Source of the DNA: Pseudomonadota bacterium
GTDB taxonomy: Bacteria; Pseudomonadota; Alphaproteobacteria; Rhizobiales; Beijerinckiaceae
DNA: 34,046 nt
Reading direction: 5' to 3'
Assembly (NCBI GenBank): GCA_021813805.1
Contig: JAKAJL010000037.1
Span: 1-34,046 of the forward strand
A model generated the notes under the pieces. That model was not told the DNA's origin, ran no database searches, and saw only the letters and a program-made list of their open reading frames with translations. A program made the position numbers and the translations under genes. Below, piece by piece: positions 2,186-24,296 of this stretch; position 1 is the first letter of the stretch; every line of letters starts with the position of its first letter.

Positions 2186-2674
<489 letters not shown>

Positions 2675-2711
2675 GACGCGTCGCGTTTTTCCCAAACTTC
2701 GCGGAACCGCC

Positions 2712-4022
2712 ATGAGAAAATCGCCTCTCTCTCTCGGCCTCGCGGCCGTCGCCTGCCTCTTCGCCGTTCCCGCCTTCGCCGGGCAAAGCCCGATCGATCC
2801 GGCCGACACGGCTTTCATGACCTTTTCGACGGCTCTGGTTCTTCTGATGACCCTGCCGGGGCTGGCGTTGTTCTATGCCGGCATGGTGCGCAAGAAGAAC
2901 ATTCTCGCGACCATGGCCCAGAGCCTGGCCGCCACGGCGATCGTCTCCCTGCTTTGGTTCGTCCTCGCCTACAGCCTCGCCTTCCGCGGCGACGGGGCGC
3001 TGATCGGCGACGCTTCGGCGGCGCTGCTGCGCGGCATCGGGCTGAACACGGTCAGCCCCTGGGCCAAGACCATCCCGGAAATGCTGTTTTCCGCCTATCA
3101 GATGACTTTCGCGGTGATCACCTGCGCGCTGGTTGGCGGCGCCACCGCCGACCGCTTGAAATTCTCGGCTTTCGCCTTGTTCTGCGTGGTCTGGCTGTTC
3201 ATCGTCTATGTGCCGAGCGCGCATTGGGTCTGGGGCGGCGGCTTCCTCGCCCAGTGGGGCGTGATCGATTTCGCGGGCGGCACGGTGGTTCACATCAACG
3301 CCGGCGTCGCCGGTCTGGTCGCGGCGCTGATGGTTGGCGCCCGCACCGGCTACCGCAAGGAGAATTTGTCGCCCTTCGACCTGTCGATGGCCTTTGTCGG
3401 CCTCGGCCTGCTGTGGGTCGGCTGGTTCGGCTTCAACGGCGGTTCAGCGGAGGGCGCCGGCTCGCGCGCGGTTTACGCCATTGTCGCCACCCATCTGGCC
3501 GCCTGCGCCGGCGCCCTGGTGTGGTCGGGCATCGAATGGGTGCACAACGGACGCCCCTCGGTTCTCGGCCTGATTTCCGGCGCCGTCGCCGGTCTCGGCA
3601 CCATCACCCCCGCCTCCGGCTATGTCCTGCCCTGGCAGGGCGCCGTCATCGGCGTCCTGGCCGGCGGGACCTGCTACTGGTCCTCGACCGCGCTGAAGGC
3701 GAAACTCGGCTATGACGACTCGCTCGACGTTTTTGGCGTCCATGGCGTCGGCGGCGTTCTCGGCACGCTGATGGCGGGCGTTTTCGCCACCGCGTCGGTC
3801 AGCGCCTCGAGCGGACAGGCGGGAATTTCCGGCCTGCTCGAAGGCAACCCCCATCAATTGCTGGTCCAGGCGGAAGGCGTGGTCGTCACGATTCTGTGGT
3901 GCGTCATCGGCACGGCTGTCTCTTTGAAGATCGTCGACCTGCTGGTCGGCCTGCGCGTCGCGCCCGACGACGAGCGCCTCGGCCTCGACCTCGCGCTGCA
4001 TGGCGAAGCGCTCCATCAGTGA
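2712..4022 (+). CDS. amtB: Ammonium transporter Amt, first copy
   Basis: A 436-residue polytopic inner-membrane protein with an N-terminal signal peptide (cleavage near VPAFA) and the usual 11 membrane helices. The channel twin histidines are in IDFAGGTVVHINAG and DVFGVHGVGG. WGWFGFNGG-type and GLISGAVAGL helices are typical of the family. Amt trimers conduct ammonium/ammonia and are gated by GlnK, whose gene lies 37 bp upstream. It lacks the alanine-rich extra loop seen in the second Amt at 5616, so the two paralogues probably differ in gating or affinity. A strong hairpin follows 48 bp after the stop. Confidence 0.95.
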   Translation: MRKSPLSLGLAAVACLFAVPAFAGQSPIDPADTAFMTFSTALVLLMTLPGLALFYAGMVRKKNILATMAQSLAATAIVSLLWFVLAYSLAFRGDGALIGDASAALLRGIGLNTVSPWAKTIPEMLFSAYQMTFAVITCALVGGATADRLKFSAFALFCVVWLFIVYVPSAHWVWGGGFLAQWGVIDFAGGTVVHINAGVAGLVAALMVGARTGYRKENLSPFDLSMAFVGLGLLWVGWFGFNGGSAEGAGSRAVYAIVATHLAACAGALVWSGIEWVHNGRPSVLGLISGAVAGLGTITPASGYVLPWQGAVIGVLAGGTCYWSSTALKAKLGYDDSLDVFGVHGVGGVLGTLMAGVFATASVSASSGQAGISGLLEGNPHQLLVQAEGVVVTILWCVIGTAVSLKIVDLLVGLRVAPDDERLGLDLALHGEALHQ

Positions 4023-5209: not shown

Positions 5210-5596
<387 letters not shown>

Positions 5597-5615
5597 ACAT
5601 CTTCAGGAGAAAATC

Positions 5616-7151
5616 GTGCTGAACTTTTCCACCCGCCGCAACGGGCCAAAAGCGCTCGTTCTCGCTTTGGCCGGCCTGACTGTTTGCGCCGGCGCGGCTT
5701 ACGCCCAGGACGTCGGCGCCCGAGACGCCGCGCCCCTCGTCAACAAGGGCGACAACGCCTGGATGCTGATCTCCAGCGCCCTGGTGCTAATGATGTCCAT
5801 TCCCGGCCTCGCGCTCTTTTACGGCGGCCTCGTGCGCGCCAAAAACATGCTGTCGGTTCTGACCCAGGTGCTGACCATCGTCGCGCTCGTCGGCGTGACC
5901 TGGACGCTGTTCGGCTATTCGCTGGCTTTTTCCGACGGCGGCGCCATGACCGCGTTTGTCGGCGGCTTCAGCAAGGCTTTCCTAAGCATTGCGCCGGAAG
6001 GCAAGACCATCGCCGACGCAACCGTGCCGACCTTCTCCAACGGCGTGGTCATCCCGGAACTGACCTATTTCGTGTTCCAGATGACCTTCGCCATGATCAC
6101 CCCCGCGCTGATTGTCGGCGCCTTCGCCGAACGCATCAAATTCTCGGCCATGCTGCTGTTCATGTTCCTGTGGTCCACCCTGATCTATCTGCCGGTCGCC
6201 CATTGGGTCTGGTACGCTGCCGCGCCAGACGACGTGGCCTCGGCCGCCAGGGCTTTGGCCGCGGCGTCCGGCGGCGCCGCGAAGGCGGCGGCGCAGGCGA
6301 AATTCGACGCGGTCACCCATTCGGTGGGCTGGATCGGCGGCGGCCTCGCGCCGTGGATGAAAGGCGTCGGAGCGCTGGATTTCGCGGGCGGCACGGTCGT
6401 GCATATCAACGCCGGCATAGCGGGCCTCGTTGGCGCCCTGGTGATCGGCAAGCGCATCGGCTATGGCCGTGAAGCTTTGCCGCCGCATTCGTTGACCATG
6501 TCGATGATCGGCGCCTCGCTGCTGTGGGTCGGCTGGTTCGGCTTCAACGCCGGCTCGGCGCTGGAGGCCTCCGCGACCGCGTCGCTCGCCTTCGTCAACA
6601 CCATGATCGCCACGGCGGCGGCGGCCCTGTCGTGGCTCTTCTCGGAATGGACCCTCAAGGGCAAGCCCTCGCTGCTCGGCCTGATCTCCGGCGCAGTCGC
6701 AGGCCTCGTCGCAGTGACGCCGGCTTCCGGCTTCGCCGGCCCGATGGGCTCTCTGATCCTCGGCCTGATCGTCTCGCCGATCTGCCTGTTCTTCGTCTCC
6801 ACCGTGAAGAACAGGTTCGGCTATGACGACGCGCTCGACGTGTTCGGCGTGCATTGCGTCGGCGGAATCACCGGGGCCCTCCTGACCGGCGTTCTGGTCA
6901 GCCCGGCGTTCGGCGGCGTCGGCATTACCGATTACGCCAATGTCGCGGGCAATAACATTGGAACCTATGACATGGCCCGGCAGATGATCGCCCAGGCCAC
7001 TGCGGTTCTCGCCACTTTGATCTGGTCGGGCCTTGGCTCCGCCGTCCTGTACAAGATCGTCGATCTCGTCATCGGCCTGCGTCCCACCCGCGACGAGGAG
7101 CGCGAAGGCCTCGACATCGCCGAACATGGCGAACAGGCCTATAATTATTGA
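5616..7151 (+). CDS. amtB: Ammonium transporter Amt, second copy with alanine-rich insert
   Basis: The GTG start at 5616 is supported by AGGAG at 5605-5609. The 511-residue product has a signal peptide ending near AAYAQ and the Amt helices, with channel histidines in LDFAGGTVVHINAG and DVFGVHCVGG. Compared with the first Amt it carries an extra alanine-rich segment (about residues 208-245, PDDVASAARALAAASGG onward) between membrane helices, probably periplasmic, and a longer loop before the last helix. Similar insertions occur in other alphaproteobacterial Amt proteins. It conducts ammonium under control of the adjacent PII protein. It ends at a strong bidirectional terminator. Confidence 0.95.
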   Translation: MLNFSTRRNGPKALVLALAGLTVCAGAAYAQDVGARDAAPLVNKGDNAWMLISSALVLMMSIPGLALFYGGLVRAKNMLSVLTQVLTIVALVGVTWTLFGYSLAFSDGGAMTAFVGGFSKAFLSIAPEGKTIADATVPTFSNGVVIPELTYFVFQMTFAMITPALIVGAFAERIKFSAMLLFMFLWSTLIYLPVAHWVWYAAAPDDVASAARALAAASGGAAKAAAQAKFDAVTHSVGWIGGGLAPWMKGVGALDFAGGTVVHINAGIAGLVGALVIGKRIGYGREALPPHSLTMSMIGASLLWVGWFGFNAGSALEASATASLAFVNTMIATAAAALSWLFSEWTLKGKPSLLGLISGAVAGLVAVTPASGFAGPMGSLILGLIVSPICLFFVSTVKNRFGYDDALDVFGVHCVGGITGALLTGVLVSPAFGGVGITDYANVAGNNIGTYDMARQMIAQATAVLATLIWSGLGSAVLYKIVDLVIGLRPTRDEEREGLDIAEHGEQAYNY

Positions 7152-9675: not shown

Positions 9676-9752
<77 letters not shown>

Positions 9753-10132: not shown

Positions 10133-10242
10133 GGAAATGTCCCCCTCGTTGCCCTGTTCGGACCGCATCGATTGGCCACCGTGCCGAGGATCGGGTCGGT
10201 TGGTGAGGCGGAACGCCTCGTCTTGATGCAATGTTGATCTTA

Positions 10243-12077: not shown

Positions 12078-12185
12078 CCGTCGCGAATTGTGTTGAAATT
12101 GCCGGCGGAGCCTCCGCGCGGATTTACGATAGCCGATCACGCCGCGAGGTCAACGGTTTGATCGGCACGGCGCCAGCGCCAAAAT
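12078..12185. repeat. Upstream repeat block R1 (108 bp)
   Basis: This block is about 75-80% identical by eye to 14977-15085 (R2), in the same orientation. It shares the end words CCGTCGCGAA and GCGCCAAAAT, the segment GGTCAA(C/T)GG(T/C)TTGATCGGCAC, and one small indel. Each copy lies 113-130 bp upstream of a minus-strand gene for an exported protein (start 11948 or 14864). Confidence 0.75.
12126..12153 (-). promoter_or_regulatory. Promoter-like pair in R1
   Basis: On the minus strand, TTGACC (12153-12148) and TATCGT (12131-12126) are separated by 16 bp and lie about 180 bp before the ClpP-fold gene. The same geometry occurs in R2, which supports a housekeeping-type promoter. Confidence 0.5.
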
Positions 12186-12821: not shown

Positions 12822-12888
12822 GAAGCGCCTCCTTGGTTGCCTTGCGGCCGCATCCCCTTTCGGGCGCCACCTTGCCGAGGACAGCAGG

Positions 12889-13278
12889 TTGGCTGAGGTC
12901 GAGGACCTCATCGAGATGCAAAATCATTATGACGGGCGTTTTGGCGTACGGCAACCGCTGCACGAAGTGGAACTGAAGGGGCTGGACATCTTCGACCCGC
13001 AGTCGCTGGACACCGAGGCCATCGAAGGAGAGAGCGTGCCGTGCTGGATGCTCGACACCGACTACGACGGGCTCTGCTTCTATGCGACACAGGTCTTTTT
13101 CCCGAAGACCAGCGCCTGGGACAACCTGCAGCGGTCTCTCGGCGCCCGGTTCGATGAATCCGTCTGGTCCCATCTTTCGGGAACGGTCAGCGAGCCATTT
13201 GCTCTGGGTGGGCGCCGTCGCATCGCAGTCAAGGTGATCGACGAGCGCGGGAACGAGTTGATGCGCGTCCTGGACGTG
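12889..13278 (+). pseudogene. C-terminal fragment of a site-specific DNA methyltransferase (type III Mod-like)
   Basis: About 130 codons resemble the extreme C-terminus of large site-specific adenine methyltransferases: MQNHYDGRFGVRQPL, then CWMLDTDYDGLCF, QVFFPKTSAWDNLQRSL, and the ending RRIAVKVIDERGNELM. No catalytic motif (FxGxG or DPPY) and no N-terminal part exist upstream. The normal end is also lost: the frame runs on into the antisense of a small secreted-protein gene until 13491. It is therefore a decayed remnant left by a deletion or recombination event, the only clear plus-strand coding relic in the island. The family call rests on remembered sequence style, not on a search. Confidence 0.5.
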
Positions 13279-14976: not shown

Positions 14977-15085
14977 CCGTCGCGAAGTGTGTTGGAATTT
15001 GTCGGCGCGGCCTCCAAGCGATTTGAACGTAATCGATCGGGCTGCGGGGTCAATGGCTTGATCGGCACAGCGCCGGCGCCAAAAT
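14977..15085. repeat. Upstream repeat block R2 (109 bp)
   Basis: The second copy of the block described at 12078-12185, 113 bp upstream of the exported-protein gene starting at 14864. Conservation is highest at both ends and around the promoter-like pair. Confidence 0.75.
15026..15053 (-). promoter_or_regulatory. Promoter-like pair in R2
   Basis: On the minus strand, TTGACC (15053-15048) and TACGTT (15031-15026) are separated by 16 bp, the same geometry as in R1. It would drive 14864 and the small genes below it. Confidence 0.45.
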
Positions 15086-15127: not shown

Positions 15128-15661
15128 TCAGCCTTTACGCAACGCCTTCGGCTGGTCGACGATCTCGCCTTCAATCGTCTTTGCGGCCTCCTGCAGCCGC
15201 TGCTCGAACAGCAAAAGCTCATCGAGGGAAAGGCTGTCGGCGAAAGCATCCTCAATGCGTGGCCCTTGCACGACGACGTCGATCTTCGCGTTCGCCTCCA
15301 GCCGGGCCTCGATCTGGAACTTGTCGCCGAAGTACCGGGGGGCCGTCTTGCCCGAGAACCACCGGCGGGCGTCGATGGCCACCGCCGCGTCGGAGCCGCG
15401 ACAGTCGGCAAGCGGGACGACTTCATGCGCGCGGAGCAGGCCCAGAGCGGTGTAGGCCTTGTCCAACATCCGCCCAAATCCAGCATGTCTCTCTCGCCAG
15501 ATTTCGGCCTGCAGCAAGTTCGGCATCCCCGGCGTCTTGGCGATCTCGGCGGGCGAAACGCCGGAGGCGATCATGTGGCAGTAAAGCTCGCCAGCCTCCT
15601 CCGTGTATTCCGGCGGCCGGGCCCACGGCGGGATGAGGGACGTCTCTCTCTTCCGCGGCAT
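15128..15661 (-). CDS. Terminase small subunit-like protein (second of two)
   Basis: 177 residues from ATG 15661, which overlaps the upstream stop by one base (TGATG), so translation is coupled. Residues ~30-65 form a helix-turn-helix-like DNA-binding part (YCHMIASGVSPAEIAKTPGM). The later segment AVAIDARRWFSGKTAPRYFGDK matches the conserved C-terminal block of Sf6-type terminase small subunits, which recognise pac DNA. The tail (EQRLQEAAKTIEGEIV) is helical. No large terminase is present, the situation of satellites that redirect a helper phage's packaging. Its N-terminus begins MPRKRETSLIPPW. Alternative: a phage-derived regulator of other function. Confidence 0.6.
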   Translation of the reverse strand: MPRKRETSLIPPWARPPEYTEEAGELYCHMIASGVSPAEIAKTPGMPNLLQAEIWRERHAGFGRMLDKAYTALGLLRAHEVVPLADCRGSDAAVAIDARRWFSGKTAPRYFGDKFQIEARLEANAKIDVVVQGPRIEDAFADSLSLDELLLFEQRLQEAAKTIEGEIVDQPKALRKG

Positions 15662-16110
15662 CAGATGTCCTCCCCGTCCGCCGTTACGGCCTGCGCCGCC
15701 TGCCGGAGGCCTTTCGACAGGGCTCCGTGAAGGTGCTTCCGGGCGTCGATCCGCTCGGCGGCTTCGGCGGCGTCGGGGCCGTCGGCCAGCTCCATGACCT
15801 CGTGCCGGAGCTTCAGGACGCGCGCCCGCTTGGCGGCTTGGTAGGCCTCCATGATTTCGGGGTTCTCGTGGACCCAGCGGCGCCAGACGCACTCGCTCGG
15901 CATTCGATACGTCTGGTAGACGACGGGCATCGGCACGCCGCTCGCGACCAGCCGCAGAAAGCGGGAGACGGTCTCCGGGTCGGGCTGCCGGGCAGACATC
16001 CCAGAGCCGAACGGCCGCGAAGCGCGGCTGTAAAATTTCTTCCTTCGCTTGAGCAGCGGCTTATCCCCTAAAAGGGGATAAAACACGTCCTGAAAATCAT
16101 CGTTCGGCAC
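15661..16110 (-). CDS. Terminase small subunit-like protein (first of two)
   Basis: 149 residues from GTG 16110, with AAGGAGAGG upstream. The core RFLRLVASGVPMPVVYQTYRMPSECVWRRWVHENPEIMEAY is a homeodomain-like DNA-binding segment. ERIDARKHLHGALSKG corresponds to the RIDARKW...K block of terminase small subunits. It differs clearly from the following paralogue, so the pair is an old duplication or two subunits of one complex. It lies just beyond the iteron array and helicase, where packaging genes sit in several satellites. Function inferred from motif style only. Confidence 0.55.
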   Translation of the reverse strand: MPNDDFQDVFYPLLGDKPLLKRRKKFYSRASRPFGSGMSARQPDPETVSRFLRLVASGVPMPVVYQTYRMPSECVWRRWVHENPEIMEAYQAAKRARVLKLRHEVMELADGPDAAEAAERIDARKHLHGALSKGLRQAAQAVTADGEDI

Positions 16111-16229
16111 CTGCCTCTCCTTTCATCGGAAACACACACACACACTCGCCCCAGTCCAAGACCGGCGGGCCAAAAAAGCCTCTCCCGCCGCTCCTCCCGA
16201 AATTAAATTTTGCAGCCCCCCCTGGGGGG

Positions 16230-16324
16230 ACGGGATATAACGGGACAAACGGGACAAAGAGAAATTTTCTTTATATTTCAAACGTTTCTTTATCCCGTCG
16301 GTCACGGGACAAAGACGGGACAAA
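16230..16324. repeat. Iteron array 1, putative replication origin
   Basis: Left set: ACGGGATATA (16230), ACGGGACAAA (16240) and CGGGACAAA (16250), spaced 10 bp. Then an A/T-rich middle (16259-16290) including TATTTCAAAC. Right set: inverted TATCCCGT (16291), ACGGGACAAA (16304) and ACGGGACAAA (16315), spaced 11 bp. A poly-C/poly-G hairpin (16216-16229) adjoins the left edge. Iteron sets flanking an A/T-rich stretch next to the 3' end of the helicase gene is the arrangement known for SaPI-type satellite origins. The 13-bp core CCGTCGGTCACGG (16295-16307) recurs at 23665-23677 on the other strand. Confidence 0.65.
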
Positions 16325-16330
16325 GCCCGT

Positions 16331-18469
16331 CTACTCACGCAGGTAGTCCTCGATGGTTTCGTCGGGCTTCAGTTCGTGCTGGAGGCGTTCGATGCGCAGC
16401 CGATAGGCTTCGGCGCATTTGACCGGGTCGGCGTGCAGCTCGGCGACGGCGCTCGGTTCGCCGAGGAAGTGACCGCCCGCCGAAGCCTCCAAAACAGAAC
16501 TTGGCTTCAGCACCCGGTACTTCGTGCCCGCCTTGGGGCCCGCGCCAGCCGGGGCGCGCTCGATGATCTTTTCGGCGACGGCGGAATTGATACGCCTCCC
16601 CAGCGTGTCTTTCGACTTGGTCCCGAGGCGCGCGAGAAGCTCGGCGAAGGTGATCGACACCCATCCGTCGTGCTGCATGAAAGGCGGGAAGCCGCCAGCT
16701 CCCTGCGGTATCGGCCCGTTCTTGCCGAACGCCGCGGCGGCTTCCTTCGTCGCCGCCTCAAGCGCCTTCACGACCAAAATGACTCCGCCGTCGACCTTCA
16801 CGCTTTGCGACACCGCCAGCGCCTCGCCGACCGCCTCGTGAGCGAAACGATAATCGTCGAGGGTCGCGATCAAGCGGCCCGCGCCATCGACTTCGCGCTG
16901 GTAGCGGCGGGCGACGGTGGCGGCGCGGACCACGTTCATCGCGTTTTCGACGCGGCGGCGGCTATCGACGAACCCGAGCGACCCCAGCGTCGCAAAGATC
17001 GCGTCGCCGAAGGGGATGACGACCTGATAACCGTCCCCCGGCGCATCGAGCTGGAGGAGCTCCTGATAGGCCTTCACCGCCTCGATTTCGTCGTCGGTCG
17101 GCGGCTCGTGAACCGGCGCCCCCATGTCCTTTTTCAGCATGTTGGCGATAATCCGCGACGTGTGGGCCTCGCTTTCGTTCGTATACAGCGGCACCAAGCG
17201 GGTTGCCAGTTCGCGTTCGATGTTGTCGCGCGCCGACGTGAGCGCCAAGCTGGTGGGGCCGCGCTTCTCAACCTCGACCGTTTTCGGCAGCTCTCCGGGG
17301 CCGCCCGGAATGGCGATCAAATATTTGACCCGCCCAGTGCTGACGAGCGTCCGCAACATCGCCGTGCTGGTCGATTCCTCGCCGTTCGGCCCGGCGGCCA
17401 CTGTCGCCGCCGCTTCCGCAAAATATATGATTTTGAAGCGAAACGCGTCTTCGCCGCCGTCTTCGTCGCCGCCGCCGTAATAGGCGAGCCACTTGTCGCT
17501 GCCGCCGGTGACTTCGATCACGGCGTCTTTGGGGGCCAGTTCGAAGGTCCGATCACAGATGAAGTTCTTACCCGACGACGGGTCGCCGAGGAGGGCAATG
17601 TGGAAGCCCTTCGCGGCCATGCGGCCGAACAACATCAGAATGGTCGCCCGCTTTATCGCGCGCTCGCCCGCCACGCCACGGCGCGTCACCAAGCTGACGA
17701 TGTGTTCGAGAACGTCGGGGCGGTGCATCAGGCCCTTTGCCTTCTCCAGCAGCCCGGCGCGGTCGGCTTCCTTCTCCGCCGCCCGCTGCGCCTTCGCTTT
17801 TTCAACGCGCTCGTCATAGGCGGCTGCGGACTCGGCCGCGCTGGGCGCTTCGGCCTTCGCGATCTTCTTGCGCAACTCGTCCAGCGTCTTCTTCATGTCG
17901 CGCTTGCTCTTGCTGGTCGCGTCATAGATGGCGTCGATGAGATCGCCTGCCTCCATCACACTGACGCGGTCCTTGAGCAGGGCGAGGTCGGTCAAAGCCT
18001 GCTCGACGTCGCTGGCGGGCGTTCCTTTGGTCATCGCCTTAGCGTCGGCCATAAGCTGCTCAAAGGTGCGGCCGGTTCCCGGCGGGTAGCCGTGCTTGGC
18101 CTTGTGATCGGCCGCCCATTCCGCGTCGAATGCCTCTTTGTCCGTGTCGCCCGCCGTTCCTTCGGCGGCGCCGGCGTTGGTCTGGCCGTCGTCTGCTCCC
18201 GCCGTTCCTTCGGCGTTTGCGGAAGCGTCGGCCTGGCCTTCGTCGTCCTCGTCCATGGTGTAGATCGACAAAGCCTCGGACAGGCTGACGAGCTTATCGG
18301 CGGGGAGGGGGAGCTTCCTGTGGAGCCACCCGTAGAGTTCAAAGCCAGAGGCGCCGACCTTTTCCGTGATGCCGGGGACGTCTTCGGCAAAGTCTTCGAC
18401 CACCGCGGCCCAGAGGGCGCGAAGGTCGTCCTGATCAACGGAGGAGTCGTTTTTGGCGTGCGCGTTCAT
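16331..18469 (-). CDS. AAA+ replicative helicase of a mobile element
   Basis: 712 residues from ATG 18469 (AGGAACAGGAAT upstream). Residues 1-75 form a small helical domain, ~76-110 an Ala/Gly/Asp linker with repeated AEGTAG, and ~150-245 a charged coiled-coil-like region. An AAA+ core runs from ~245 to 480: Walker A GDPSSGKN (295-302) ends in Asn instead of Ser/Thr, Walker B is IIYFAE (Glu352) without the usual Asp, and an arginine-finger-like ELATRLVPL follows. The C-terminal ~120 residues look like winged-helix DNA-binding. This matches helicase halves of phage and satellite primase-helicases. The primase-like gene ends 14 bp upstream and the iteron array starts 7 bp after the stop, which indicates an element-specific replisome. 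Confidence 0.7.
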   Translation of the reverse strand: MNAHAKNDSSVDQDDLRALWAAVVEDFAEDVPGITEKVGASGFELYGWLHRKLPLPADKLVSLSEALSIYTMDEDDEGQADASANAEGTAGADDGQTNAGAAEGTAGDTDKEAFDAEWAADHKAKHGYPPGTGRTFEQLMADAKAMTKGTPASDVEQALTDLALLKDRVSVMEAGDLIDAIYDATSKSKRDMKKTLDELRKKIAKAEAPSAAESAAAYDERVEKAKAQRAAEKEADRAGLLEKAKGLMHRPDVLEHIVSLVTRRGVAGERAIKRATILMLFGRMAAKGFHIALLGDPSSGKNFICDRTFELAPKDAVIEVTGGSDKWLAYYGGGDEDGGEDAFRFKIIYFAEAAATVAAGPNGEESTSTAMLRTLVSTGRVKYLIAIPGGPGELPKTVEVEKRGPTSLALTSARDNIERELATRLVPLYTNESEAHTSRIIANMLKKDMGAPVHEPPTDDEIEAVKAYQELLQLDAPGDGYQVVIPFGDAIFATLGSLGFVDSRRRVENAMNVVRAATVARRYQREVDGAGRLIATLDDYRFAHEAVGEALAVSQSVKVDGGVILVVKALEAATKEAAAAFGKNGPIPQGAGGFPPFMQHDGWVSITFAELLARLGTKSKDTLGRRINSAVAEKIIERAPAGAGPKAGTKYRVLKPSSVLEASAGGHFLGEPSAVAELHADPVKCAEAYRLRIERLQHELKPDETIEDYLRE

Positions 18470-18483
18470 ATTCCTGTTCCTCG

Positions 18484-19539
18484 TCAAACGGTTGGCGCCC
18501 CGAAGAGCTTCAATCTGAGCGCGGCGATCTGCTGATCGGCCGCCGCGTTGCGGCTGTGAAAATCCCTGATTTCTGCGGCGACCCATCGCGGGCCGTAGCG
18601 AGCGACGCGGGCGGGGTCGGCGCGCGCGGCAAGGACGGCCGCGACGACCTCCTGGATGCGCTCCTCCGACGCGCCAACGCGGCAGGCGAGGCCTATGGAA
18701 CTGGCCAGCGGCCTGAAGAACTCGTGCAAGGGCGCGACGCCGACCGTCGAAATCAACCGCTTTTCCCAATCGGCGCCGCAGGCGAGTTCGACGGCGTCCA
18801 GCCGACGCTCCGCGGCCCTGAGCGGTTGGTCGAAGCGGGCGATCTGAAGATCGACCGCGTCCCGGTCGCCCTTGACCAGTACAACACGGCCGGACGGCGG
18901 AATGGGGTCGGGGAAGTTGGTGCAGAGCGGCCGCGCGGTGTAGATCGCGTGCCCCGCCTGATAGATCGAGTCGTCGATTTGCAGCCCGGTCACCGCGCGG
19001 CATCCGCGCGCCCATTGCTTGAGGGCCTTAAGATCGCAGGGGCTGGCGAGGGCGAAGAACAGCCGGCCGTTAAAGACGAAAGGATCGCCCAATCCCGTCG
19101 ACGCCGACGGCATCGCGATCATCGTCGCGCCCGCAAATTCTTCCGGCATGAGACGGTCGCGCACCCAGCGGGCCTGCGCGGTGAAATCCGCGCCGACGAA
19201 TGACGGGATGGGCTGTTTGTCGATGTCGATGGCAATCGAGGTCCGGGGCACGGCCTTGAGGGTCGCCGGCCGCGTTGGATTGGCCCACAGGCGCGGCTGC
19301 GGGCCGCCATGAGCCAGCGGCGCGCCCTGCATCAGCATGGCCGCAGGGTCCGCCGTCAGGGCCGTCAGGCGGGCGGCGAAGTCGCTCCAGCCATTCGCCA
19401 CCAAAGGCTCGAAGAGCCACTGCAGGATGTATGGGTAGGGAATTTTCTCCAGCGTGCCGTCGAGCTGGCGGGTGATGATCTTGGCCGGGCATTTGCCCGC
19501 CTCGGCCGACCGGGCGACGGTGAACTCGAATTTCGGCAT
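18484..19539 (-). CDS. AEP-like primase of a mobile element
   Basis: 351 residues from ATG 19539 (TGATG overlap with the previous stop; GTG 19542 is an alternative). Segments match archaeo-eukaryotic primases of phages: SIAIDID (Asp105, Asp107) as the metal-binding motif, MIAMPSASTGLGDPFVFNGRLFFAL as the S-x-S...(K/R)-x-H-LFF-x-L region although the usual His is Arg here, and IDDSIYQAGHAIYTARPL as the D...Y..Q.hYTA.P segment. It would synthesise primers for element replication. It sits directly upstream of the AAA+ helicase, the usual partner. The missing His means activity is uncertain; the call is from motif recall. Confidence 0.55.
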   Translation of the reverse strand: MPKFEFTVARSAEAGKCPAKIITRQLDGTLEKIPYPYILQWLFEPLVANGWSDFAARLTALTADPAAMLMQGAPLAHGGPQPRLWANPTRPATLKAVPRTSIAIDIDKQPIPSFVGADFTAQARWVRDRLMPEEFAGATMIAMPSASTGLGDPFVFNGRLFFALASPCDLKALKQWARGCRAVTGLQIDDSIYQAGHAIYTARPLCTNFPDPIPPSGRVVLVKGDRDAVDLQIARFDQPLRAAERRLDAVELACGADWEKRLISTVGVAPLHEFFRPLASSIGLACRVGASEERIQEVVAAVLAARADPARVARYGPRWVAAEIRDFHSRNAAADQQIAALRLKLFGAPTV

Positions 19540-19955
19540 CACCGCCCTCCCCCCGCGACGGCCGTCAGCTTCGGCGCCGCGCCGAACGATCCTGGGCCAG
19601 GCGAAATTTCGACTTGCACGGGCCGGCCCCTCGTGGCGAAGGCGATGTCGCGCATGAGCGTCTCAAAGCCGCGCCGCTGACCTTCGACGGCCGCCGGAAC
19701 GCCCGCCAGTTCGCGCCAAGTGTCGAGGAGCCGAAGATTGCGGAGCACGACCGGGCGGGCTGTCGGCGTGGGCGAGTGCAGAAGCATTTCGACTTCGATG
19801 CGCTGGGCGGCGCCGCCGGCCGCGACCTCAAGATCGAGGCTCGCGATGGTGTGGAGGCCTCGAGTAATTTCGCGCGCGCCGAGAAGCCGCGCACGAAACG
19901 AGCCGCTCGGGAACGGCGGGGAAGAAGATGGAGAGGGGGCTTCGGCCTGCGTCAT
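19539..19955 (-). CDS. Hypothetical protein in the replication operon (138 residues)
   Basis: ATG 19955 overlaps the stop of the PcfJ-domain gene (ATGA), and its stop overlaps the primase start, so it is translationally coupled on both sides. The protein has a Ser/Pro-rich N-terminus and then a beta-rich core (FRARLLGAREITRGLHTIASLDLEVAAG, IEVEMLLHSPTP, VVLRNLRLLDTW) and a glycine-rich end. I do not recognise the family. The position suggests an accessory replication factor, possibly single-strand DNA binding, but no motif proves it. Confidence 0.6.
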   Translation of the reverse strand: MTQAEAPSPSSSPPFPSGSFRARLLGAREITRGLHTIASLDLEVAAGGAAQRIEVEMLLHSPTPTARPVVLRNLRLLDTWRELAGVPAAVEGQRRGFETLMRDIAFATRGRPVQVEISPGPGSFGAAPKLTAVAGGGR

Positions 19956-21355
19956 TTCGCCCCTCCCGCCGCCTTGACGAACTTCTTGACGGCGGTGCTG
20001 GCGCGGGACGGGAGTTGGACGTTGCTCGGTCCGTAGGCCTGAAGGAGGTGGAGGCGGCCGTCGGCTGCCTCGCCGATTTCCGCCGCGCCGATCAGCGCGC
20101 CTCGGTCGAGGATGGCGAAATATGCGCTCGCGCCCGCCTGCATTTTCTCCGGGTGGCCCAGACCACCCATGCAATTGTCCAAGACCTTGCCGAGTTCGCC
20201 CATCGCCTCGACCCGGGCGATGCGGCGGATAAAAATTCCGTCGACCTCGGCCGAACGGGGAAAGGCATCGTCGGACTCGACGCCGAAATCAGGAATTTTG
20301 GCCGCGCGGCGTTGCTCTTTCCGGGCGTCGGCGTGCGCCTTCAAGTCGGCGCGGTGCCGTTCGACGGCGGAAAGGGCGTTTTCCAGCGAAATTTTCTCGG
20401 TCCAGCGCCGCTGCGGAACGACGGGAGCTTGCGGATCGACGCTGTCGATGATCCAGCGCACCAACGGCGCCAGTTTGCGGCCGCCGGGACCCATGACGGC
20501 GCCCGAGCCGTGCAGCAGCGACCACTTGTAGACGTTCCGCGCGACCGGTTCGTCGGCCCACGCCAGCGCGGTGGCCGCCATCGACGCCAAAGTCACCTGC
20601 CGGCGCTGCTGCAGCGAGTGTTCGTGCAGCAACCCGGCATTTTCCGCCGTCGCCCATGCACGAAGGACGCCGAGCGGGGCCTTGCTGATCGGCCCGGTGC
20701 TGGCGAAGAGCGTCCGCCGCAACACGCTCTTCGCCAGCCGCGACTTCTTCGCCAGATCGCCGAGGCCTTTGGCCTTTTCGCGCTGCGCCAGAAGGAGTGA
20801 CAGGGGCGCGGCCTCGAGCAACTCGGCCATGCTGGCGTCCGCCGCAGCCGCTTCGAGCGCCTGCCGGCGCAGGGACGGCGGGAAGCGCCTTGCCAGCCGC
20901 GCCAGCGCGTCGGGATGACCACGCAGAAGGTCTTCGACGACGCAGTCGACGAAGCCCAGCGCCAAGGCGGCGCTCGAAAACTCGTCCTCGCTGCCATCCA
21001 TCGCGTCGCTGACGACGCCCATCGCAAATCCGCCGGACGTCAAAGCGTGGACGGCACTCTCCTTGACGGCTGCGGCTCGGACGGTCGGCGGAATGTCACC
21101 GACGCCATGCTTGGCGACGACGAACAACTCGCCCTCGGCCATGCGGCCGATGGCCGCCATCGCGTTCCGGCCCGCAATCGCCTGTAAAGCGGGTTTGCGC
21201 GCGGACATGACGGCGGTGATGAGCGACGGCGGGATTGGCGAAAGCCCCAGCGCCGTCAGCTTTTTTGCGGCGTTGCAGGCGATCTGGCGGCGACAGCGGG
21301 CGACCGAGGCTCCCGAGTGTTTCGACGCTCTGGATTTGCGACGACTATACTGCAT
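19952..21355 (-). CDS. PcfJ-domain protein
   Basis: 467 residues from ATG 21355. The first ~300 residues are helical and alanine/leucine-rich. Residues ~340-460 match the PcfJ-like domain: MGELGKVLDNCMGGL with its conserved Cys, then YFAILDRGALIGAAEI, and the closing LLQAYGPSNVQLPS. PcfJ-like proteins occur on conjugative plasmids and mobile elements; their biochemical role is not settled. A 6-bp hairpin overlaps its ribosome site, suggesting translational control. It heads the coupled run toward the primase and helicase. Confidence 0.65.
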   Translation of the reverse strand: MQYSRRKSRASKHSGASVARCRRQIACNAAKKLTALGLSPIPPSLITAVMSARKPALQAIAGRNAMAAIGRMAEGELFVVAKHGVGDIPPTVRAAAVKESAVHALTSGGFAMGVVSDAMDGSEDEFSSAALALGFVDCVVEDLLRGHPDALARLARRFPPSLRRQALEAAAADASMAELLEAAPLSLLLAQREKAKGLGDLAKKSRLAKSVLRRTLFASTGPISKAPLGVLRAWATAENAGLLHEHSLQQRRQVTLASMAATALAWADEPVARNVYKWSLLHGSGAVMGPGGRKLAPLVRWIIDSVDPQAPVVPQRRWTEKISLENALSAVERHRADLKAHADARKEQRRAAKIPDFGVESDDAFPRSAEVDGIFIRRIARVEAMGELGKVLDNCMGGLGHPEKMQAGASAYFAILDRGALIGAAEIGEAADGRLHLLQAYGPSNVQLPSRASTAVKKFVKAAGGAK

Positions 21356-21358
21356 TTT

Positions 21359-21376
21359 GGCACCTTTTGCGGTGCC
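21359..21376 (-). promoter_or_regulatory. Hairpin over the PcfJ-gene ribosome site
   Basis: On the minus strand, GGCACC-GCAAAA-GGTGCC stands 3 nt before the ATG at 21355. The right arm contains the only ribosome-site-like word (AAAGGTG), so folding would hide it. This suggests translational control, or a chance inverted repeat. Confidence 0.4.
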
Positions 21377-21457
21377 GCGCGCGATAGACAGACCGGCTAA
21401 TTACGCGTAAAAATCGGGTGTCTTACGTCCGATCTCCCCGCGCCGCCGCCGTGCCCG

Positions 21458-22039
21458 TCACGCGGCGGCGATGGCTTTTTTGGCGATCTTGAGCTTACGG
21501 CGAACGGGCATTTCCGTCGTTTCGGCGGCGGCCATTTCCGTCGTTTCGGCGGGCGCTACCGCCTCTTCAGCAGGCGTAGGCGCTTCGGCGGCCACGAGCG
21601 CGGTGAGATACGCAATCAAAGACGCCACCCCCTCGCCCTGTTCCCCGGTCGCGGTGTTGTGCCAGCGACGGCTGGCGAGGTTCATCGCAACGCCCTGTGG
21701 GCGGGCGATGAAGTCCTCGATTTCTTTGCCGATCTCCAGAATGATCCGCGTGGCGGCTTCGACGTCGTCGTCCAGCCGGTGGACCGCCTTGACCATCTCG
21801 ACTACGGAGTTGCCCTGCGCGATCAATTCGCTGTCGTCATGATTGTTCAGAATCCAGTCGCCGGTCTGGATGTCGGCGCTAAGTCTCCAGTCCGCTCTGC
21901 GATCAGACGCGACGTAATGGCTGCCGCTAAACCCGCCGTAACGGCGGTCGCCGCGACAAAGTACGCGCAAGAGCGCGGGAAGAAGGCGGAAGGCCGCGCG
22001 CTCAACCTCGGCGAGATCTAGATTTACTCCGGGGTGCAT
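21458..22039 (-). CDS. Hypothetical protein (193 residues) with ETTEM repeat tail
   Basis: ATG 22039 has GGAG 8 nt upstream, so the long in-frame extension above it is not used. The N-terminal part (LAEVERAAFRLLPALLRVL) is helical. The middle contains ADWRLSADIQTGDWILNNHDDSELIAQG and an acidic helical stretch. The C-terminus repeats AETTEM twice and ends in a lysine-rich RRKLKIAKKAIAAA, typical of DNA-associated proteins. I do not recognise the family. It lies between an AlpA-like regulator and the PcfJ-domain gene, in the same direction. Confidence 0.55.
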   Translation of the reverse strand: MHPGVNLDLAEVERAAFRLLPALLRVLCRGDRRYGGFSGSHYVASDRRADWRLSADIQTGDWILNNHDDSELIAQGNSVVEMVKAVHRLDDDVEAATRIILEIGKEIEDFIARPQGVAMNLASRRWHNTATGEQGEGVASLIAYLTALVAAEAPTPAEEAVAPAETTEMAAAETTEMPVRRKLKIAKKAIAAA

Positions 22040-22070
22040 CGAAAAACTCCGTTGTTGAGGATCAAAGCTT

Positions 22071-22343
22071 TCATTTTTCGGAAGCGGGGCGCCGCGCAGC
22101 CGCGTCGCCCCCGCCGGTCGAAGCCGCGCTGCGGCGTGGGGCGCCACGGCGGGGCGGGAGGCCGAGGCCCTCTTCGCCAAGCCGGCGAAATTCAGCGGCC
22201 GGGACGATTACGCGGCCGCCGATGCGGGCGACTTTGATTTTTCCGAGTTTCTCGTACTTCCAAAAAGTCGCACGCGAGAACCCATAAGACTCATAGGTTT
22301 CGCGGGGAGAAAACCCGGCGCGGTCGAGTGGTTTGGTTGTCAC
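22071..22343 (-). CDS. AlpA/excisionase-like helix-turn-helix protein
   Basis: 90 residues from GTG 22343, preceded by GGAGGTG; ATG 22379 is an alternative. The core SPRETYESYGFSRATFWKYEKLGKIKVARIGGRVIVPAAEFRRL is the MerR-like winged helix of AlpA and excisionase proteins, which act as transcription activators of integrases or as recombination directionality factors. The C-terminus is basic and Gly/Arg/Ala-rich. It sits behind an A/T-rich, repeat-bearing operator region and begins the replication operon. A second, unrelated DNA-binding protein of this type is encoded at 23257. Confidence 0.7.
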   Translation of the reverse strand: MTTKPLDRAGFSPRETYESYGFSRATFWKYEKLGKIKVARIGGRVIVPAAEFRRLGEEGLGLPPRRGAPRRSAASTGGGDAAARRPASEK

Positions 22344-22367
22344 TGAGCAGCACCTCCATGCTTTGCT

Positions 22368-22414
22368 GTTATGAAACATAACGCATAATGCCTAACAGTA
22401 CTACATATTACTGT
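22368..22414. promoter_or_regulatory. Operator-like inverted repeats before the replication operon
   Basis: Three dyads stand in a row: GTTATG-AAA-CATAAC (22368-22382), GCAT-A-ATGC (22383-22391) and ACAGTA-N8-TACTGT (22395-22414). A/T content is far above the surroundings, and TATTAT on the minus strand nearby could be a -10 box. This probably controls the operon starting at 22343. The rest of 22380-22664 holds no gene I can support. Confidence 0.5.
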
Positions 22415-22664
22415 GATAATACGTTGTGTAGTGTATTCGCTTGTCATTGATGCAGGACATTACTAGTGCTTGCTTGAACTTACTGTGGCGCACAGCAACC
22501 AGCTGCTAACGGTCTGAAATAACTCGCTTATCGTTGCCGGGGGCAGTCGCCGGACGCGCTCCGGGTCGGTCCCGGTCGGTCCGGCGAACGCCCTGAACAT
22601 TACGAAAAATTAATGTTTTGGGCCGCCTCTGCGGCGATGCGGCGGGCGCGAAAAGGGTCGTCGA

Positions 22665-23093
22665 TCATTGCCAGCCGAGCTTTCTGGCCAGCGCAGCCGG
22701 AAACTCCGGCAGCGTTCCCGCCGCCATCACGTCGACCAGACGCGGCGAGCCCCTGAGAATGCACAGCGCGTCGAGTGGGCTGGGCGCCGTGTCGGCAACC
22801 GTCACGCCCGCCGCCTCAGTGTGCTTGGGGACGGCCCGGGGACGGCGGAAGAAGGCGTAGAGCGTGCGACGATCCAAGTCGGCGTAGGTCGGGCACGTCG
22901 CCGGTCCGAGGCCGGTTTCGCGGCTGAGATCGTTGATAGCGTTGGTGGAGATCGCCAGCGCCAGAACGCCCGACTTCTCGGCGTCGAAATTGATCTCGAC
23001 GTCGAGATTGGTGCGCCAGCCGTAGACGACGCGGGGCGCGTCGGACGCCAGATCGCGGCGGTCGCCGGGAAAGAGGAAGAAGCCTTTGATCAA
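22665..23093 (-). CDS. Hypothetical protein (142 residues), TTG start
   Basis: TTG 23093 overlaps the TGA of the 56-residue gene, and GAGAGGG precedes it, so coupling supports this unusual start. The product begins MIKGFFLFPGDRRDLASDAPRVVYGWRTNLDVEINF and contains SGVLALAISTNAINDLSRETGLGP and TPDR-like turns such as TYADLDRRTLYAFFRRPRA. It ends in FPAALARKLGWQ. No motif is recognised. It belongs to a three-gene coupled unit headed by a helix-turn-helix protein at the island's right end. Confidence 0.5.
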   Translation of the reverse strand: MIKGFFLFPGDRRDLASDAPRVVYGWRTNLDVEINFDAEKSGVLALAISTNAINDLSRETGLGPATCPTYADLDRRTLYAFFRRPRAVPKHTEAAGVTVADTAPSPLDALCILRGSPRLVDVMAAGTLPEFPAALARKLGWQ

Positions 23094-23260
23094 GGTTTCG
23101 CCCTCTCTGAGGCCCGCTGCTGCTGCTGCTGGATGGCGCGTCGGCGTGCGCGGCGGATTGAGATCCCGAGCGCGATCCGCTCGCCGATGCGCACGCCGAC
23201 GCGCGCGGCGATGAAATTGACCGCGGTGTACCCCGCGACGTTCAAAAGGAGGGGCATCAT
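23090..23260 (-). CDS. Small hydrophobic/basic protein (56 residues)
   Basis: ATG 23260 overlaps the stop of the helix-turn-helix gene by ATGA, and its own stop overlaps the next gene's TTG. The first ~35 residues (MMPLLLNVAGYTAVNFIAAR) are hydrophobic or amphipathic and may form one membrane helix; the rest is arginine-rich with a run of five glutamines. Function unknown. Confidence 0.5.
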   Translation of the reverse strand: MMPLLLNVAGYTAVNFIAARVGVRIGERIALGISIRRARRRAIQQQQQRASERAKP

Positions 23261-23544
23261 GGCGTCGGCTCCGGCTTCTTCGCTCTCGGGCCGCGCTGGC
23301 CGCGCTTGAAGCCGCCGACGGGGGTGTATTCCGACGTGGAGCTGACCTTCGGCGACAGCTGTGCCTCGGCCCATGCGTCGAGATCGGCGATCTCGTAGAC
23401 GACGAAGCGACCGACACGCGCGTATTTGGGGCCGCCGCCTTTCGTCGCCTTTTCCGCGAGCAGACGCGCGCTGCCGAAACCATGCTTTTCATTGAGGTAT
23501 GAGCCCGCCTCGGGACGGCGGAGACGATGACGATTACTATCCAT
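23257..23544 (-). CDS. AlpA/excisionase-like DNA-binding protein, second copy
   Basis: 95 residues from ATG 23544 (a longer start at 23580 is possible). The N-terminal SYLNEKHGFGSARLLAEKATKGGGPKYARVGRFVVYEIADLDAWAE is the typical winged-helix fold of small phage regulators and excisionases, ending in a WAEA helix. The C-terminus is basic (KRGQRGPRAKK). It heads a coupled three-gene unit and lies about 100 bp from iteron array 2, which it might bind. In satellites the neighbouring gene is often an integrase; none is seen here. Confidence 0.65.
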   Translation of the reverse strand: MDSNRHRLRRPEAGSYLNEKHGFGSARLLAEKATKGGGPKYARVGRFVVYEIADLDAWAEAQLSPKVSSTSEYTPVGGFKRGQRGPRAKKPEPTP

Positions 23545-23647
23545 TGAATACTGCCCTTGTTTTGTTGAGCAGCATCCCATTTACGCCCTATTCGGGGGGC
23601 TTAAGAGGTCAACAATATTTTTGCCCACCCTCAGTCGGCGAAAAAGT

Positions 23648-23732
23648 TCTAGACCGTGTCTGGACCGTGACCGACGGTCTAGATAAGTGTCTGAAATACA
23701 GAGAAATCTTCGTTCTAGACCGTCTAGACCGT
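23648..23732. repeat. Iteron array 2, putative second origin
   Basis: TCTAGACCGT occurs at 23648, 23714 and 23723 (overlapping by one base); TCTGGACCGT (one mismatch) occurs at 23659; and an inverted copy, ACGGTCTAGA, at 23674. An A/T-richer middle (23684-23712) contains GTCTGAAATA, the complement of the TATTTCAGAC word seen in array 1 as TATTTCAAAC. The 13-bp CCGTGACCGACGG (23665-23677) is the exact complement of the array 1 core. The layout is array 1 inverted, with a different iteron word. Confidence 0.6.
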
Positions 23733-24296
23733 TCCGTGCCCATCCGGTTAACGCACACACCTACAACATGTAGACGGGAGGCGAGTCAGATTGATGGGCA
23801 TGATCGACCGAGTCCGGCTCTGAATGGACGTTCCCGACAAAATCCGCGACCGCCTCAAGTCGACCCTGAGCGGGCCTCCAGTTGGCGGTCCTGACCGGCT
23901 CTTCGTGATGAAGAAGCGGCCATACCGTGGCGGCTCTCAGAACGGCGTTGTCGCTTCCCCCTTCTTCAATTTTCGAGCAGGCTACGCAGCATCCGGGCCG
24001 TCTTTTTGTGGACGTCAGGGGGTTGAGTCAGAAGGTCGGCGGTGGGCTGGTCGTGCCGGGGGCGCCGGGAAGCCGGAGCGCGCGGATGCGCGCGGCGATC
24101 AGATAGAGTCCTGTGTCTGGAAAAGGCGTGATCGGCGTCGGCGGGAAAGCCGGGCGTCATTTTTTGTCTGGGCGGTTTCAACCCGACGACGCTGGTGACA
24201 TCCATCGACTGGCTTCGCCGGGGCTCGCAGTAACAAGCCTTTTTTTGGCAGCGGCCCCAAAAGACAGCCTCACCGCCTTGAAGGCGCAATCATTTA
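23733..24296. other. Gene-poor island edge
   Basis: Roughly 560 bp without a gene I can support. Frames on both strands are arginine/proline-rich and lack ribosome sites or recognisable motifs. No integrase remnant or duplicated tRNA end is seen. The last ~150 bp before the PadR gene (from ATTTTTTGTCTGGGCGG) could be chromosomal or a dispersed intergenic repeat. The island's right border probably lies here. Confidence 0.4.

What the first reader, a model, noticed from the sequence alone, without database searches (positions are those of the whole stretch)
16230..23732. Two iteron arrays with the same architecture and core but different iteron words
Seen directly: array 1 (16230-16324) uses CGGGACAAA and array 2 (23648-23732) uses TCTAGACCGT, yet both follow one plan. 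Each has a pair of iterons, an A/T-rich middle with TATTTCA(A/G)AC, an inverted iteron, the exact 13-bp core CCGTCGGTCACGG, and a second iteron pair. They lie in opposite orientation. Established: SaPI-type satellites carry iteron sets flanking an A/T-rich stretch at the end of their primase/helicase gene. Inference: these are two related origins (or one origin and one decoy or competing origin) that diverged in initiator recognition.
Basis: partly seen in the sequence, partly recalled or inferred. Interest (0 to 1): 0.85.

Follow-up and report, generated by a model that had tools for sequence, protein, structure and literature searches.

The report
Satellite with two origin-like iteron arrays
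A phage-satellite-like island in a bacterial chromosome carries two copies of one replication-origin design spelled with two different recognition words; one sits where such origins normally sit, directly after the helicase gene, and the other looks like a second origin whose starter protein is not known.

Summary
Both arrays have five 9-bp iterons (four exact, one with one mismatch) in one plan, with direct copies spaced 9/55/11 in each, in opposite orientation. Words are CGGGACAAA (array 1, 16240-16326) and CGGTCTAGA (array 2, 23648-23733). The AT-rich spacer (20/30 identical) and the 7 bp TCGGTCA are shared; the "13-bp core" is these 7 bp plus the iteron heads. None of 200 shuffles gave two such clusters.

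Array 1 is very probably the replication origin of a PICI-like satellite. It starts 6 bp after the helicase gene; all 3 close helicase relatives also have an array 31-72 bp after theirs, one with almost the same word (CGGGACAAG). In viral contigs this word forms arrays beside several other replicative helicase families.

Array 2 is the odd one. It is not beside a helicase, its paired word occurs in none of the other 396 family genomes searched, and no convincing second initiator was found in the genome. Yet it is intact. I read it as an orphan second origin of different specificity, captured from a related satellite; binding by the resident initiator, a regulatory role or a remnant are not excluded. 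Two iteron words in one satellite would be a new variant of a known kind.

The parts
16240..16326 (+). Array 1: direct pair, 30-bp AT-rich spacer, inverted iteron, TCGGTCA, direct, direct; word CGGGACAAA. Proposed replication origin of the resident satellite.
16230..16239 (+). Further degenerate copy (CGGGATATA) at the edge of array 1
   Evidence: by eye; inverted repeat I4
23648..23733 (-). Array 2: same plan on the other strand; word CGGTCTAGA. Proposed orphan second origin.
16331..18469 (-). Helicase / putative initiator gene ending next to array 1 (P-loop ATPase; weak match to the MCM P-loop domain, below Pfam's cut-off)
   Evidence: (PF00493, E 7.8e-4, 19.1 bits against a cut-off of 23.3), alignment with three relatives
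18484..19542 (-). Primase-like gene (label recalled; no Pfam hit); conserved upstream of, or fused to, the helicase in three relatives
15128..15892 (-). Terminase small subunit, Sf6 type
15661..16110 (-). Second terminase small subunit, Sf6 type, first gene after array 1
19952..21355 (-). Unknown gene of the replication operon (PcfJ-like by recall only; no family hit)
22071..22379 (-). Small helix-turn-helix protein (weak HTH_17, below cut-off)
   Evidence: E 0.02
23257..23580 (-). Small AlpA-like protein (label recalled; no Pfam hit), first gene next to array 2; homologue in the VapE satellite of the same genome
   Evidence: E 8e-8
9676..9752 (+). tRNA-Arg(CCT), probable left boundary of the island; its left flank is conserved in the genus

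Best explanation
Region 9.75 to about 23.73 kb is a PICI-like phage satellite next to a tRNA-Arg gene. Array 1 is its replication origin. The large ATPase encoded just upstream, probably through a C-terminal winged helix, binds the CGGGACAAA iterons on both sides of the AT-rich spacer and opens it (binding and melting are inferred, not shown). Array 2 is a second origin of the same build but re-specified to CGGTCTAGA. It most likely came from a related satellite with another initiator specificity and is now an orphan origin. It would fire only when a matching initiator, from another satellite or a helper phage, is present.
For: Plan, spacer and centre are shared without gaps and are more than chance. 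Array 1 starts 6 bp after the helicase stop; in the 3 close helicase relatives (30-35% identical) an array starts 31-72 bp after the stop. One of them, G620, uses CGGGACAAG; the other two use CGGTGCAA.

The tandem word CGGGACAARCGGGACAA was found in 85 viral contigs; 50 of 85 hold a cluster of at least 4 copies within 120 bp. A gene of at least 250 aa ending within about 350 bp was found in 46 of 93 word-bearing loci (window and other genome loci included). They fall into 11 groups. Of ten viral representatives scanned, eight had a Pfam hit: AAA_25 (4), VapE (2), D5_N (1), Zn-ribbon primase (1); two had none. In 7 of the 50 array-bearing viral loci a relative of the terminase small subunit is present (three of the seven look like near-duplicates).

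Array 2 retains 44 of 45 consensus iteron letters, the same as array 1 (read), so it is not visibly decaying. A single initiator keeping two arrays would be expected to keep one word (inference). The two-array cases seen elsewhere (own-genome VapE satellite, L175, L203) use one word per element.
Against: No convincing cognate initiator for array 2: the helicase C-terminus has two weak further matches in the genome (E 0.025 and 0.51, each with a stop inside). The tandem word CGGTCTAGA with 0-4 bp between occurs only in this genome among 397 family genomes. It has ten viral hits, none shown to be an origin: all ten were looked at by eye, neighbours only for L218 and L221, which have no gene of 150 aa or more ending within 400 bp. 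No close relative of either array was found in 397 family genomes, so the donor satellite is hypothetical. No integrase was found among the ORFs scanned and no attR, so the right boundary is not proven.

The structure prediction failed (mean pLDDT 42), so the winged helix rests on sequence pattern, low-confidence secondary structure and below-cut-off HTH hits in the relative L014. For the plasmid pRN1, whose replication protein also has primase, helicase and winged-helix parts and whose origin also lies just 3' of its gene, gel shifts and footprints showed no specific binding by that protein (PMC4234260, passages). Helicases that share the word CGGGACAA show no detectable common C-terminal domain. 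No binding or replication data exist for this element.
Confidence: 0.5

Rival explanations
1. Two sites, one initiator: both arrays are bound by the resident helicase through the shared parts (CGG heads, TCGGTCA centre, AT spacer), as in satellite P4, for which two replicons are named in cited titles.
For: Shared CGG heads and centre; the two sites flank the replication module 7.3 kb apart; only one convincing initiator is present. P4 two-replicon papers are cited in PMC6092414 (reference list seen; the papers themselves not read).
Against: Five iterons differ in concert in several letters of the word, which a single recognition domain would not be expected to allow (inference); other double arrays found use one word.
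Confidence: 0.2
2. Array 2 is a regulatory site: an operator for the operon that starts at 23580 on the minus strand, bound by a small helix-turn-helix protein of the element.
For: Array 2 lies 67 bp upstream of the first ORF of the leftward operon, and a small HTH-type protein is encoded nearby. Array 1 also lies about 130 bp upstream of a terminase ORF.
Against: The two arrays have opposite orientation relative to the gene downstream. Conservation of the AT spacer and the 9/55/11 geometry is origin-like. No sigma-70-like promoter was found in either region, though this scan is weak evidence.
Confidence: 0.15
3. Array 2 is a dead remnant of an earlier satellite at the same insertion hotspot.
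For: The right side of the tRNA-Arg gene looks variable in the genus. Array 2 sits at the edge, beside a dispersed repeat starting at about 23735. No integrase was found.
Against: 44 of 45 iteron letters intact; no other piece of a second replication module was recognised in the window.
Confidence: 0.12
4. Chance similarity of two repeat clusters.
For: Iteron clusters are common in such elements.
Against: None of 200 shuffles gives two clusters; the spacer's best match falls exactly at the other array.
Confidence: 0.02

Closest known systems
PICI / SaPI replication origin (Fillol-Salom et al. 2018, PMC6092414, passages read)
   Same: Array immediately 3' of the replication initiator gene; two iteron sets flanking an AT-rich stretch; a terminase small subunit gene among the following genes.
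   Different: Helicase without a Pfam hit above cut-off and without a solved relative; no integrase found; a second array of another word at the far end of the module.
PLE of Vibrio cholerae (PMC8263062 and PMC7145576, passages read)
   Same: Satellites whose origin and the initiator's DNA-binding domain change together; a phage nuclease (Odn) that reads the iterons is proposed to select for this.
   Different: In PLE each element has one of the two specificities; here both words are in one element. [quoted passage not shown]
Plasmid pRN1 (PMC4234260, passages read)
   Same: Primase-helicase replication protein with the origin just 3' of its gene.
   Different: The pRN1 origin is a stem-loop; the authors found no iterons and no specific binding.
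Satellite phage P4 (two replicons; titles seen in a reference list only)
   Same: A satellite with more than one replicon.
   Different: From recall, P4 sites share one iteron type read by the alpha protein; not checked here.
VapE satellite in the same genome (contig C47, L048)
   Same: Dir-dir, spacer, inverted, direct layout after the helicase gene, twice in tandem; two stretches of about 850 and 370 bp shared with the window island at 89-90%.
   Different: Both arrays use one word (GTCTGACGG); unrelated helicase (VapE); no match to the array model R1.

Membership tests
PICI-like phage satellite | Initiator gene followed directly by an origin with two iteron sets flanking an AT-rich stretch | tested here: met
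   Layout only: array 1, 6 bp after the stop; spacer 23% GC
PICI-like phage satellite | Integrase and specific attachment site | tested here: not met
   No integrase among the ORFs scanned, which are not all ORFs; tRNA-Arg at the left edge but no second copy of its 3' end found. May be lost or outside the contig.
PICI-like phage satellite | AlpA / excisionase-type small regulator | tested here: inconclusive
   23257-23580 has no Pfam hit but a homologue in the VapE satellite; 22071-22379 weak HTH_17
PICI-like phage satellite | terS without capsid and tail genes | tested here: met
   Two Sf6-type terminase small subunits; no capsid or tail family among the ORFs scanned (Pfam; PHROGs on 10 ORFs)
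PICI-like phage satellite | Helper-phage-dependent induction and packaging | not testable with these tools
   needs phage experiments
Iteron-type replication origin (array 1) | Array location conserved beside the initiator in relatives | tested here: met
   4 of 4 close helicases including the window; 0 of 6 distant ones, of which G113 had only 192 bp to test and has five CCCTGAC repeats inside the end of the open frame, not counted
Iteron-type replication origin (array 2) | Array beside an initiator gene | tested here: not met
   Nearest gene is the small AlpA-like gene; helicase 5 kb away
Iteron-type replication origin (both) | Specific binding and autonomous replication | not testable with these tools
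   none
P4-like two-replicon satellite | Both sites share the same iteron word | tested here: not met
   CGGGACAAA against CGGTCTAGA; that P4 sites share a word is recalled

The most novel reading that the evidence does not exclude
One satellite keeps two working origins with different words: its own, and one that answers to a foreign initiator (rival satellite or helper). That would let it replicate on another element's initiator, or survive a phage nuclease that reads one word, as Odn does for PLE origins.
Probability: 0.2. Interest if true: 0.8.

Novelty: new variant of a known kind. Interest (0 to 1): 0.52.

Why it matters
In PLE satellites origin and initiator specificity change as a pair, and a phage nuclease can target the origin (PMC8263062). 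An element that holds two specificities of one origin design is a natural test of how such switches happen: for example by capture of a second origin before the initiator changes. The side result matters too: one iteron word, CGGGACAA, sits next to several unrelated helicase families, while two of the three close relatives of this helicase use another word. So the word is not tied to the helicase family, and what reads it is an open and testable question.

Tried and rejected
Core as a search handle: core, N8, CGG gave 25 viral stretches that show no array by eye. TATTTCANAC with the core: 0 viral hits. Arrays as blastn queries: no match in plasmids or phages. Helicase as tblastn query: none in phages, 7 weak plasmid records. 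Helicase, helicase-alignment and 19952-21355-gene scans of viral contigs: none confirmed. Genome-contig scan with the helicase alignment: 2 loci, one apparently the G646 contig and one weak. Own genome searched with 16200-23750: only itself. Structure: poor model, no fold search made. Solved structures: no match.

Shared C-terminal domain among helicases near the CGGGACAA word: profile comparison of five groups found none (probabilities at most 0.4%); two groups had only 2 sequences, so power is low. Insertion boundary by synteny: only the left side resolved. Shared flanks of the two arrays (segmental duplication): only the 13-bp core matches. Defence genes: no PADLOC hit for 8 proteins.

Limits. 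control windows come from the same loci and include the arrays, so they are not a clean null. In one search other repeat clusters with copies in both orientations were listed for 9 of the 50 viral loci (at most 4 per locus printed); clusters with copies in one orientation only were dropped before listing. I judged the nine by word and spacing as not of this plan and did not examine each. One search counted 93 loci, which include the window (L213) and G620 twice. In one search only 66 of 93 loci had 3 or more copies of CGGGACA within 300 bp, so many tandem hits are not arrays. VapE survey: at least 4 copies within 500 bp of the stop in 4 of 13 loci, 3 copies in three more, and arrays about 1 kb away in two. 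One search used stricter filters that lose weak matches.

Literature: eight answered searches listed no report of one satellite with two iteron words; this covers only titles and abstracts shown from the held open-access library, and two SaPI origin papers (PMC3804134, PMC1964853) were not held.
Full report
WHAT IS THERE. Both arrays exist at nearly the stated coordinates. Array 1 (16240-16326, plus strand) and array 2 (23648-23733, minus strand) each hold four direct and one inverted 9-bp iteron. Direct spacing is 9, 55, 11 in both when read in the same sense. Aligned without a gap they share 57 of 89 positions: 30 of 44 outside iterons, 27 of 45 inside. Each array keeps 44 of 45 letters of its own word; the window holds four exact copies of each word and none outside the arrays. 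In the dinucleotide-shuffle control none of 200 shuffles had two clusters and 3 had one or more. The 30-bp spacer of array 1 finds its best match in the window at array 2 (20/30; 17/30 elsewhere).

A CORRECTION. The 13-bp core is made of the heads of two iterons placed head to head (CCG...CGG) and the 7 bp TCGGTCA. Around the loop CGGTC both arrays form 10-bp arms with a single A.C mismatch at the same pair, although the word differs. As single-stranded DNA the array 1 centre folds better than all 200 shuffles and the array 2 centre better than 196 of 200; the array 2 stretch given was slightly cut at one end.

THE SURROUNDINGS. A tRNA-Arg gene at 9676-9752 marks the probable left edge. One or both genes before it are found beside the tRNA in 8 of 8 relatives of the genus examined. 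Genes after it in the two relatives used as queries had no match near the tRNA in the others, apart from one at 29% identity. From there to about 23.7 kb the likely genes run leftward: cargo, two Sf6-type terminase small subunits, array 1, helicase, primase-like gene, unknown genes, small HTH-type genes, array 2. Gene limits rest on GC by codon position. Labels 'primase-like', 'PcfJ-like' and 'AlpA-like' are my recall; no Pfam hit supports them. The helicase has a weak MCM P-loop match below the Pfam cut-off. Array 2 ends within a few bases of a dispersed repeat, shared by several genomes of the genus, that begins at about 23735.

RELATIVES OF ARRAY 1. Six of 396 other family genomes have a helicase match; three cover most of the protein at 30-35% identity. 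All three have an iteron array 31-72 bp after the helicase stop, the window 6 bp. Six distant relatives (three from the family search, three from a search of 297 genomes of the order) show none within 500 bp; G113 had only 192 bp to test, and its open frame carries five CCCTGAC repeats, mostly 11 bp apart, near its end. Words: CGGTGCAA in G646 and G611, CGGGACAAG in G620. The G646 contig appears to be that of a Beijerinckiaceae MAG (same length and match). The same placement is seen in VapE elements of the family: 4 of 13 loci have at least 4 copies within 500 bp of the stop, with other words.

THE WORD TRAVELS. The tandem CGGGACAARCGGGACAA occurs in 85 viral contigs, 50 of which hold a cluster of at least 4 copies, and in 6 of 347 family genomes including this one (reversed control pattern in 2). 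Long genes ending near word-bearing sites (46 of 93 loci) fall into 11 groups, the largest of 28. Pfam scans of ten viral representatives found AAA_25 in four (all of the largest group), VapE in two, D5_N in one, Zn-ribbon primase in one, and nothing in two. Their C-terminal parts show no detectable similarity between groups or to the window helicase. Relatives of the terminase small subunit occur in 7 of the 50 array-bearing viral loci. Thus array 1 matches a helicase - array - terminase arrangement seen elsewhere, while its word is not tied to one helicase family. What reads the word is not shown.

ARRAY 2. It has no helicase beside it. The paired word occurs only here among 397 family genomes. 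Ten viral hits at spacings 9-13 were looked at by eye; neighbours were checked for two of them, and neither has a gene of 150 aa or more ending within 400 bp. A sequence model of both arrays finds nothing else in 397 genomes (strict filters), nothing in 32 other loci and only weak partial matches (E 0.22 or worse) in 91 further loci. The helicase C-terminus has no convincing second match in the genome (E 0.025 and 0.51, each with a stop inside). Elements with two arrays of one word exist (C47 VapE satellite, L175, L203). I saw no other element with two words of one plan, but only loci of limited length were examined and nine loci with other clusters were judged from the listing alone.

HOW IT PROBABLY WORKS. 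Shown: location, plan, conservation of placement, intactness. Inferred: the resident initiator binds array 1 and opens the AT-rich spacer. The published PICI description (PMC6092414, passages) places the origin 3' of the initiator with two iteron sets flanking an AT-rich region that 'could be the melting site', and shows plasmid replication for one such E. coli region. Against simple extension, the pRN1 replication protein showed no specific binding to its 3' origin (PMC4234260, passages). For array 2 a single initiator would be expected to keep both arrays alike; the concerted change of five iterons with retention of spacer and centre points to a history under another initiator, hence capture from a related satellite. 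PLE gives a precedent for exchange of origin and initiator domain, proposed to be under pressure from an origin-reading phage nuclease (PMC8263062, passages). Rivals are one initiator with two sites, an operator, or a remnant.

VERDICT. Observation confirmed; interpretation partly supported; new variant of a known kind. My estimates: array 1 as origin about 0.8; array 2 as origin-type module rather than regulator or accident about 0.65; the capture reading in full about 0.5.

Noticed in passing
window 10135-10234 (-) and 12823-12924 (-); L048 10208-10310 and 11850-11949; L057 5097-5196: SAM-I/IV riboswitch aptamers at the start of small cargo genes towards the tRNA end of the island; also in the VapE satellite of the same genome and beside a tRNA in another genome of the genus.
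   Followed up: partly
L048 (own genome contig C47, 25000-44999): A second satellite in the same genome: integrase, VapE helicase, two tandem arrays of one word, tRNA-Ala end, cargo shared with the window island.
   Followed up: partly
L125-L209: Iteron word CGGGACAA forms arrays beside several unrelated replicative helicase families in viral contigs; no shared C-terminal domain detected.
   Followed up: partly
window 23735-23820: Dispersed repeat of about 90 bp in several genomes of the genus (10 of the 12 matching pieces in G443), starting right beside array 2.
   Followed up: partly
window 12078-12185 and 14977-15085: Repeat of about 105 bp, twice in the island, also in L048 and L049.
   Followed up: no
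window 15128-16110: Two Sf6-type terminase small subunit genes in a row.
   Followed up: no
window 2409-4022 and 5331-6915: Long direct repeats (72-84%) suggesting a tandemly duplicated stretch outside the island.
   Followed up: no
window 16216-16229: C-run/G-run palindrome just left of array 1 (by eye).
   Followed up: no
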